From the NCBI GenBank assembly GCA_004524535.1, contig SDNY01000020.1:1-39688 (forward strand): 39,688 nt of DNA. Reading direction: 5' to 3'. Below, one piece after another: positions 26,804-28,734 of the stretch. Each line of letters begins with the position of its first letter. The first letter of the stretch is position 1. Position numbers and translations under genes: made by a program. Source of the stretch: Promethearchaeota archaeon. GTDB lineage: Archaea > Asgardarchaeota > Lokiarchaeia > Sigyniarchaeales > SOKP01. The notes below the pieces were generated by a model. The model was not told the DNA's origin. It made no database searches and was given only the letters and a program-made list of their open reading frames with translations.

Positions 26804-27508
26804 ATGAATATGCAAAGAAAATACCGTATAAAATCAAAAGAAAAATCGAAAGAAACAAAAGAACCAATAACAAAAAAAAAAGTTATAGTTGCTACTTTTT
26901 TAATATTTTTTGCTTTTTTCGGATCTTTTCTTTTTTATTTCTTATTGTCGATTGCATTAAATACTGATACTCCAATGGTGGTAGTAGTTTCAGATTCAAT
27001 GGCACCAAAGATTAATACAGGGGACCTATTATTTCTACAGGGGAGAGATCCTGAGGATATAGAAGTGGGAGATGTTGTTGTTTATGACGCTCCATGGGCA
27101 GGAGCACCTGATGAACCTATTGTTCACCGGGTCGTTGGTATAAGATATAATGAAGAAAAAGATCGATATGAATTTCGAACTAAAGGGGATGCTAATGATT
27201 ATAAGGATGAGGAATGGTTCCCAGAACAGCGTATTAGAGGAGTAGTAATTGGCAGAATTCCGTACATTGGCTGGGTTAAAATAGTTTTAACAGATTATGG
27301 ATTATTCCTTCCAATTCTTATAATTCTCTCAGTTCCTCTTATTATAAGTATAATTTGGGATATTATTAAAGGTGAAGAGGAGAAGGAAAAGGAAGAAAAA
27401 ATGGAAAAAACAGATTTTTTAGAAGAAGAAATCAAAATAAAAGATGAAAGAAAACAAATAAAGAAAGTTGATCGAGTGGAGAGTAGAGATGACGATTTTG
27501 ATTTCTAA
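26804..27508 (+). CDS. Signal peptidase I, archaeal/ER (Sec11) type
   Basis: A 234-residue membrane protease of family S26B. A basic N-terminus (about 25 residues) precedes a transmembrane helix (about 27-52). The catalytic core follows: Ser in VVSDSMAPKINTGDL (about residue 65), the general-base His in PIVHRVVG (about 107, His rather than bacterial Lys) and an Asp in TKGDANDYKD. A second hydrophobic segment lies at about 165-190, and a highly charged Glu/Lys-rich cytoplasmic tail completes the protein. It removes Sec signal peptides from exported proteins. It is a single gene, with an inverted repeat and TATA-like sequence upstream. Confidence 0.93.
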   Translation: MNMQRKYRIKSKEKSKETKEPITKKKVIVATFLIFFAFFGSFLFYFLLSIALNTDTPMVVVVSDSMAPKINTGDLLFLQGRDPEDIEVGDVVVYDAPWAGAPDEPIVHRVVGIRYNEEKDRYEFRTKGDANDYKDEEWFPEQRIRGVVIGRIPYIGWVKIVLTDYGLFLPILIILSVPLIISIIWDIIKGEEEKEKEEKMEKTDFLEEEIKIKDERKQIKKVDRVESRDDDFDF

Positions 27509-27743: not shown

Positions 27744-28028
27744 ATGAAAATGTCCAAAGACGAAAATGCTGTGTTTGTTGGCCGACGTCCCACCATGAAT
27801 TATGTGATGGCGACGATGATGATCCTTAACAAAGGTGAAGACTGCACTGTTAAGGCACGTGGCAGAGCTATTTCTCATGCTGTCGATGTATGCGAAATTT
27901 TACGCAACAGATTTTTAAAAGGCACAGAATATAAAGATATAAGATTATCTACTGAACAATTAGAAGGAGAAAATGGACAAAATAATAACGTATCAAGTAT
28001 AGAGATTGTCCTTGCTCCACCAAAATAA
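27744..28028 (+). CDS. alba: Alba chromatin protein
   Basis: A protein of about 94 residues in the Alba family. The core contains VFVGRRPTMNYVMATMMIL, the RNA/DNA-binding loop, KARGRAISHAVDVCEILRNRF and a C-terminal strand pair. Alba coats DNA and RNA in archaea. An ATG at 27651 in the same frame would add a very Lys-rich tail of 31 residues, but nothing resembling a ribosome site precedes it. AAAGGT (27737-27742) sits well for the ATGs at 27744 or 27750, so the short form is preferred. It stands within 1.3 kb of a histone gene, making this a small chromatin locus. Confidence 0.88.
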   Translation: MKMSKDENAVFVGRRPTMNYVMATMMILNKGEDCTVKARGRAISHAVDVCEILRNRFLKGTEYKDIRLSTEQLEGENGQNNNVSSIEIVLAPPK

Positions 28029-28149: not shown

Positions 28150-28157
28150 TTTATAAA
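28150..28157 (+). promoter_or_regulatory. TATA box of the 38-residue peptide gene
   Basis: TTTATAAA at 28150-28157 matches the archaeal TATA consensus. A transcript start about 25 nt downstream would leave a leader of about 25 nt containing GGAAGTGA just before the ATG. Confidence 0.6.
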
Positions 28158-28203
28158 CCTCTAGTTACCATTAAAAGTAAATTATTTAACGGAAGTGAAT
28201 TTA

Positions 28204-28320
28204 ATGGAGTTAAGCAAAAAAGTGTTGGTTGCTTTAGCTATTCTATTAACAGTTTCTTATGGTTTAAGTATGGCTGCGGCTGGAGTAAGCATTCCAGGAT
28301 GCGGCGAAGCTGCCCCTTAA
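28204..28320 (+). CDS. 38-residue secreted or membrane-anchored peptide
   Basis: An ATG with GGAAGTGA at 28191-28198 (5 nt away) opens a 38-codon frame ending TAA. The product begins MELSKKVLVALAILLTVSYG. A short basic N-terminus and a hydrophobic stretch of about 16 residues look like a signal peptide or a single membrane span, followed by a small Ala/Gly-rich tail with one Cys (GCGEAAP). A clear TATA box lies upstream and a T-rich terminator downstream, so it looks like a real, separately transcribed unit. No family is known to me. It lies between alba and the histone gene. Confidence 0.6.
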   Translation: MELSKKVLVALAILLTVSYGLSMAAAGVSIPGCGEAAP

Positions 28321-28734
28321 ATCCTAAGGAATGTTTTAAATAATAGCTAAAAATTTATATTTTTTTTTCTTTTTTTTGCTAAATTGGAAAAATTTATTAT
28401 ATATAATATCTATAGAAATTCAATTTTTGCTTTATTTTCAAAAAAAAGAAAGATTTTAAATGTTCAAATCAAGAGCTTATATCTCTCAAAAGATTACATA
28501 CTTTTTATATGTAATTTTTCATGAAAATACATTTACCGATTAAATTTTCGGTTTTTGGATCCTTTAGAAAATACTATTTAACCTAAAAAAATGTGATTTA
28601 ACTAAGATTTAACAATAAATTTCAATAACATTTAAAAACTCAATTATACAAATTATTAATTAACAGTATTTAGAATTTTTTACAAAACTAATTAATAATA
28701 ATATAAAAACCTTAATTAAAAGAGGGAATAAATT
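28321..28734. other. 414 bp gene-free stretch before the histone gene
   Basis: It holds the terminator at 28360-28377 and a hairpin at 28493-28515 (ATTACATA pairing with TATGTAAT around 7 nt, followed by T5). A second small stem, CCGA with TCGG, lies near 28540, also followed by T's. The histone promoter must lie at its end; the sequence before 28700 is TATA-like throughout. An undescribed small RNA around 28440-28560 is possible. No reading frame of note is present. Confidence 0.4.
28360..28377 (+). terminator. T-rich terminator after the peptide gene
   Basis: A nearly unbroken run of T (broken by one C) begins 40 nt after the peptide stop codon. Oligo-T runs are the usual archaeal intrinsic termination signal. 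Confidence 0.55.

What the first reader, a model, noticed from the sequence alone, without database searches (positions are those of the whole stretch)
28150..28377. A discrete 38-residue peptide gene between alba and the histone gene
It has its own TATA box, good Shine-Dalgarno sequence, a hydrophobic span and a T-rich terminator, yet is too short for most gene finders. The tail (GCGEAAP with a single Cys) after a signal-like segment could be a lipid-anchored or secreted peptide.
Basis: seen in the sequence. Interest (0 to 1): 0.5.

Follow-up and report, generated by a model that had tools for sequence, protein, structure and literature searches.

The report
Tiny secreted-peptide gene family in Lokiarchaea
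The 38-residue reading frame is a real gene of a previously unnamed, multi-copy archaeal family that appears to export peptides of about nine to fourteen residues, which makes it a testable candidate for peptide signalling in the archaea closest to eukaryotes.

Summary
Window 28204-28320 is an ATG frame of 38 aa with its own TATA box, Shine-Dalgarno and T-run terminator. It is a gene: two paralogs in the same genome encode the identical peptide with 16-21 nucleotide differences, all synonymous, while flanks are unrelated. I collected 47 copies in 27 genomes of one Lokiarchaeal order. 37 of 47 have a TATA-like box 45-75 nt upstream and 44 of 47 a T-run within 90 nt downstream. Each looks like a one-gene transcription unit, mostly at unrelated housekeeping loci.

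All share a signal-peptide-like N-terminus, usually with an A-x-A-type site, and a 9-14-residue tail (here GVSIPGCGEAAP). Where signal parts diverge, the tail usually does not. The lipid-anchor idea fails: the Cys is not universal, Pro sits at lipobox -2, and readable N-termini of exported relatives show no lipobox.

Best explanation: a Sec-exported, signal-peptidase-processed extracellular peptide, most likely a ligand-type signal; processing and signalling are inferred. Main rival: an uncleaved single-pass microprotein. No Pfam, NCBIfam, PDB or Rfam family matches significantly.

The parts
28150..28157 (+). TATA box TTTATAAA of the peptide gene, 54 nt before the ATG
   Evidence: a TATA-like hit lies at -75..-45 in 37 of 47 family copies, against 0.10-0.18 per 30 nt in most other bins
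28191..28198 (+). Shine-Dalgarno GGAAGTGA
   Evidence: GTGA-like element before the start in many copies
28204..28281 (+). Signal-peptide-like N-terminal segment, residues 1-26 (MELSKKVLVALAILLTVSYGLSMAAA)
   Evidence: A-x-A before the invariant Gly27; cleavage itself is inferred
28282..28317 (+). Predicted mature dodecapeptide GVSIPGCGEAAP, residues 27-38
   Evidence: Identical at aa level in all three own-genome copies with synonymous DNA changes
28318..28320 (+). Stop codon TAA
28360..28377 (+). T-rich terminator
   Evidence: T-run within 90 nt downstream in 44 of 47 copies, A-run in 16, upstream T-run in 6
27750..28028 (+). Neighbour: alba; the alba-peptide order is kept in two g1 genomes and in one genome each of g3 and g4
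26804..27508 (+). Neighbour: S26-type signal peptidase, kept with alba and the peptide in the same four genomes
   Evidence: PF10502, above its cut-off

Best explanation
The gene is one copy of a dispersed family of single-gene transcription units. Each makes a pre-peptide that the Sec pathway exports and signal peptidase cuts before Gly27, releasing here the 12-residue peptide GVSIPGCGEAAP. The released peptide acts outside the cell, most likely as a ligand recognised by a surface partner (a pheromone-like signal), with several identical copies giving dose or separately timed expression. Shown: a conserved gene, its own promoter-like and terminator-like elements, purifying selection, the two-part architecture, and a tail more conserved than the signal part in the Cys-type clades. 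Inferred: export, cleavage, an extracellular target, signalling.
For: Own-genome paralogs: 16, 17 and 21 nt differences, 0 non-synonymous codons where 10-12 are expected, p 0.0002 (the floor of the test); coding identity 0.82-0.86 against 0.31-0.43 in flanks. 41 copies of the PGC type in 23 genomes and 6 of the GGG/HCG type in 4 genomes. Promoter and terminator enrichment. Pairs with diverged signal parts keep the tail: G007a/b 10 of 25 aa differ in the signal, 0 of 12 in the tail (5 synonymous nt); G001b/G002a 12 of 25, 0 of 12 (11 nt); G001a/G002b 6 of 23, 0 of 12 (6 nt); G043a/b 7 of 26, 0 of 11 (7 nt); G085a/b 17 of 25, 1 of 10. So the sameness is selection on the tail, not gene conversion. 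Exported SBPs of the order have similar sites (SSSYA|KDD, TPSYA|QLP) to the g2 peptides (SYA|, SHA|, AYA|).
Against: No experiment shows export, cleavage or signalling. Residues 7-26 are long and hydrophobic enough for an uncleaved membrane helix. In family f4 (4 of 24 A4 rows) Trp sits at -3, and three rows have Met or Thr at -1. No receptor, transporter or protease gene recurs beside the copies as an evident partner, apart from the signal peptidase at the alba locus. G077 carries two peptides differing at 6 of 10 tail residues, and orthologs G085a/G077a differ at 5 of 10: in genus g2 tails change fast. Many genomes of genera g2 and g8 have no detected copy.
Confidence: 0.55

Rival explanations
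1. An uncleaved single-pass membrane microprotein: residues 7-26 are a transmembrane helix and the 12-residue tail outside binds and regulates a membrane complex.
For: Uninterrupted hydrophobic segment; Gly20 invariant across A4 and Tyr19 invariant in the 18 rows of A3, which a disposable signal would not strictly need; 7 of 24 A4 rows lack small residues at both -3 and -1 of the Gly27 site (counted by eye).
Against: Signal parts diverge by up to 12 of 25 residues while tails stay identical; cleavage-like sites in 17 of 24 rows; g2 sites look canonical. None of this excludes an uncleaved form with a functional outer tail.
Confidence: 0.27
2. A lipid-anchored peptide in which Cys33 is the lipidation site.
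For: A single conserved Cys in 22 of 24 A4 rows; sub-threshold LPAM_1 hit in 2 of 18 rows, best E 0.24.
Against: Pro at lipobox -2 everywhere; -3 variable, including Asp and Gln; Cys absent in G040, G001c and most g2 tails; no lipobox Cys in readable exported SBPs of the order.
Confidence: 0.05
3. A small hydrophobic toxin of type I toxin-antitoxin kind, or a secreted bacteriocin-like peptide.
For: Size, hydrophobicity and multiple intergenic copies resemble such toxins (recalled).
Against: No conserved flank between own-genome copies (31-43% identical), no recurrent immunity-like neighbour, no Rfam hit over the peptide.
Confidence: 0.1
4. Not coding: a conserved RNA or a chance frame.
For: Short frame in AT-rich DNA.
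Against: All own-genome differences synonymous; frame kept across genera; no Rfam match over it.
Confidence: 0.01

Closest known systems
Phr / AimP type exported peptide pheromones of Firmicutes and their phages (NCBIfam TIGR04429, NF033802)
   Same: Short pre-peptide, N-terminal signal segment, a C-terminal few residues as the presumed product; sub-threshold HMM echoes only (E 0.041 in 1 of 18 rows, E 0.16 in 2 of 18).
   Different: No significant sequence match, no adjacent receptor gene seen, several dispersed copies, and no SBP_bac_5 importer found in the window's genus (0 of 5 genomes).
Small lipoproteins such as entericidin B (NCBIfam NF007487)
   Same: Tiny, signal-like N-terminus and a Cys (sub-threshold, E 0.23 in 2 of 18 rows).
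   Different: No lipobox; Cys dispensable in the family.
Type I toxin peptides (Ldr, Ibs, Fst; recalled)
   Same: Short hydrophobic peptides in several intergenic copies.
   Different: No conserved flanking RNA; conserved Gly/Pro tail after an A-x-A-like site.

Membership tests
Sec / signal peptidase I pre-peptide | Basic N-region followed by a 10-15-residue hydrophobic core | tested here: met
   a Lys or Arg before the core in the rows read
Sec / signal peptidase I pre-peptide | Small residues at -3 and -1 of one cleavage site | tested here: inconclusive
   counted by eye, site before Gly27: -1 is A/G/S in 21 of 24, -3 is A/S/V in 20 of 24, both in 17 of 24
Sec / signal peptidase I pre-peptide | Cleavage in the cell | not testable with these tools
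   Needs N-terminal sequencing or mass spectrometry
Lipoprotein | Lipobox directly after the hydrophobic core, with an allowed residue at -2 | tested here: not met
   Pro at -2 in all 24 rows; Cys33 lies 13 residues past Gly20; the lipobox rule itself is recalled
Lipoprotein | Invariant Cys | tested here: not met
   Absent in G040 and G001c and in the G032, G077 and G085 tails
Exported peptide pheromone (Phr/AimP-like) | Significant match to a described pheromone family | tested here: not met
   Best NCBIfam E for such a family 0.041
Exported peptide pheromone (Phr/AimP-like) | Cognate receptor gene next to the peptide gene | tested here: not met
   No neighbour family recurs across non-orthologous sites as an evident receptor; neighbours were clustered, only some were named
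Exported peptide pheromone (Phr/AimP-like) | Activity of the free peptide on cells | not testable with these tools
   Needs a synthetic peptide and a culture
Type I toxin | Conserved antisense or overlapping antitoxin RNA | tested here: inconclusive
   Conservation stops at the frame in own-genome paralogs; an antisense RNA wholly inside the frame is not excluded

The most novel reading that the evidence does not exclude
This is an archaeal family of gene-encoded, secreted peptide pheromones: Lokiarchaea broadcast 9-14-residue peptides from several dispersed copies, with tails that change between genera and that a surface receptor reads as a kin or density signal.
Probability: 0.27. Interest if true: 0.88.

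Novelty: new variant of a known kind. Interest (0 to 1): 0.6.

Why it matters
It gives Asgard biology a defined, chemically synthesisable candidate for an extracellular peptide, in lineages where nothing of the kind turned up in my paper searches (listings only). The prediction is exact (a named dodecapeptide), so one mass-spectrometry run or one peptide-addition transcriptome tests it. It also shows how multi-copy genes under 40 codons can be validated from MAGs alone.

Tried and rejected
Lipoprotein reading: rejected on the lipobox, the missing Cys in several members, and the SBP comparison. RNA gene: Rfam gave only sub-threshold hits outside the peptide. Virus-borne gene: no relative in viral contigs. 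Solved structures: none up to E 1. Alba-locus scan: 30 alba loci were among the held loci scanned for similar short frames; besides copies already known, the printed hits (those with a Shine-Dalgarno or T-run) added one g2 paralog and two unrelated frames. Weak hits at E 0.005-0.007 in five other genomes of the phylum search lie in frames of 209-382 aa; I read only one (G108), a longer protein, and took none as members. The G000:C73 hit is a longer protein with a look-alike N-terminus. Structure prediction was not run.

Limits. The MAGs are incomplete, so absences are soft. G048 may be a mixed bin: its copy 'a' sits in g3-like synteny. Start codons for G001a, G002b, G007b, G016 and G025b are uncertain. 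The Fisher tests (35 of 99 signal against 0 of 47 tail changes, p 1.5e-7; with the two g2 pairs 70 of 149 against 7 of 67, p 9e-8) use pairs picked after seeing the data, and hydrophobic positions tolerate swaps more easily, so they are descriptive. One search left out G001c, G040, G048a and the six g2 copies.

Full report
What is in the sequence. Window 28204-28320 (+) is an ATG frame of 38 aa, MELSKKVLVALAILLTVSYGLSMAAAGVSIPGCGEAAP, with TTTATAAA at 28150, GGAAGTGA at 28191 and a T-run at 28360-28377. Upstream of alba is an S26 signal peptidase (PF10502).

It is a gene. The same genome (G000) holds two more copies on other contigs that encode the identical 38 residues. They differ from the window copy by 16 and 17 nt and from each other by 21 nt, with no amino-acid change where 10-12 changed codons are expected (p 0.0002, the floor of 5000 draws); coding identity is 0.82-0.86 while flanks are at 0.31-0.43. 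Of the three orthologous comparisons with the sister species G004, copy b shows 7 nt changes, all silent (p 0.0006); copies a and c have only 2 and 3 changes, one of them non-synonymous in each (p 0.64 and 0.13), too few to test.

Family and range. A profile of five sequences found the gene in 17 of the 65 genomes of the family at E below 1e-9 (the other listed rows, at E 1e-4 and above, I took as noise except the G070 row, which led to the g2 type). Phylum (227 genomes) and order (79 genomes) searches with wider profiles added six genomes of families f2 and f4. That is 41 copies in 23 genomes. A scan of 84,980 named species genomes found 17 loci, all titled Lokiarchaeota or Lokiarchaeia. The g2 hit led to a sister type, six copies in four genomes, with tails NWFPPGGGMP, NWFPLGGGMP, NWFPPSGGMP, VGYFPGGGTP, VGFIPGGGVP and GLGKQIHCGSVGP. 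I treat the sister type as probably related: same layout, cross-matches of the G070 peptide to the PGC type only at E 0.015 and weaker. No homologue was found in viral contigs, and no described family or solved chain matched significantly.

Layout. Alignment A4 (24 rows) has three fully invariant columns, Gly20, Gly27 and Pro31; Leu11, Leu15, Val28, Ser29, Gly32 and Cys33 are nearly invariant. Tails are GVSxPGCxExxP in most f1 copies, GVSVPGCGGGDSP in G048, GVSYPGCHVPQ, GVSDPGCFMPT and similar in f4, and GISIPMPGFGP and GVSIPGLKP in two Cys-less members; G029b ends GVSIPGCSEAHPKL. The residue before Gly27 is A, G or S in 21 of 24 rows and position -3 is A, S or V in 20 of 24; both hold in 17 of 24 (my count).

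Own transcription units. Over all 47 copies, a TATA-like string starts 45-75 nt before the start codon in 37, against 0.10-0.18 per 30 nt in most other bins (0.46 in the adjoining -100..-75 bin, which may hold longer leaders or late start choices). A T-run follows within 90 nt in 44, an A-run in 16, and a T-run precedes in 6. Neighbours are varied, mostly housekeeping-like genes, among them thiolase and ChsH2/DUF35-type proteins (Pfam) and, by eye only, adenylosuccinate synthetase-like, pyruvate kinase-like and small-GTPase-like proteins. Some sites are shared: signal peptidase-alba-peptide in two g1 genomes, one g3 and one g4; one radical-SAM-like neighbour (by eye) in G010 (f1) and G040 (f2), where the G040 peptide lacks the Cys. 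This points to vertical inheritance plus duplication to new sites.

The tail is the conserved product. Copies with diverged signal parts keep the tail: G007a/b 10 of 25 against 0 of 12, G001b/G002a 12 of 25 against 0 of 12, G001a/G002b 6 of 23 against 0 of 12, G043a/b 7 of 26 against 0 of 11, with 5-11 silent nucleotide changes in each tail, so gene conversion is not the reason. Among 19 within-genome pairs, 16 have identical tails, and all 4 with three or more signal differences do; among 333 between-genome pairs of comparable signal distance (0.05-0.5) 5 do (pairs are not independent, and the rows left out are named in Tried and rejected). G085a and G085b share 9 of 10 tail residues with 17 of 25 signal differences. 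Against this, G077a/b differ at 6 of 10, orthologs G085a/G077a at 5 of 10, and G029a/b at 2 of 12.

Lipid anchor or free peptide. The lipobox (rule recalled) fails with Pro at -2 in every A4 row, and the Cys is absent in several members. As a yardstick I read N-termini of 20 SBP_bac_5 loci; those that show a clear signal peptide end in sites such as SSSYA|KDD and TPSYA|QLP, and none shows a lipobox Cys; several were cut at the locus edge or had no clear start. The window's genus has no SBP_bac_5 match in 5 genomes, so uptake by a classical oligopeptide importer is unlikely there.

Mechanism and rivals. The best fit is an exported, processed peptide acting outside the cell as a ligand; I give 0.55 to the whole chain, with coding certain, export and cleavage likely, and signalling the least sure step. 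An uncleaved membrane microprotein (0.27) is the main rival and cannot be excluded by sequence.

Literature. Searches of the held library (listings only; for the string GVSIPGC, no paper) showed no report of such a peptide family in Lokiarchaea; papers outside that library were not searched, and no paper was opened.

Noticed in passing
L109:4986-5471 (G000:C73:16985-17470): A frame of up to 166 aa whose N-terminus (ISILLTVSYSLFMAAAG) nearly repeats the peptide's signal segment, joined to a domain whose relatives (G000:C76, G001:C7) match only from residue 57; possibly a captured or fused copy of the signal part.
   Followed up: partly
L226/L228 (G077:C229, G085:C128) and L225/L227 (G077:C218, G085:C47): Genus g2 genomes carry two unlinked sister genes each; in G085 the tails agree in 9 of 10 residues, in G077 in only 4 of 10, while signals follow the locus.
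   Followed up: partly
   Followed up: no
L137 (G040:C6:110939-111043): The f2 copy beside the same neighbour as G010 of f1 lacks the Cys (tail GISIPMPGFGP), a natural test of whether the Cys matters.
   Followed up: partly
L131 (G048:C95): This contig of an f2 bin shares synteny and a near-identical peptide with genus g3 of f1, suggesting a mixed bin.
   Followed up: no
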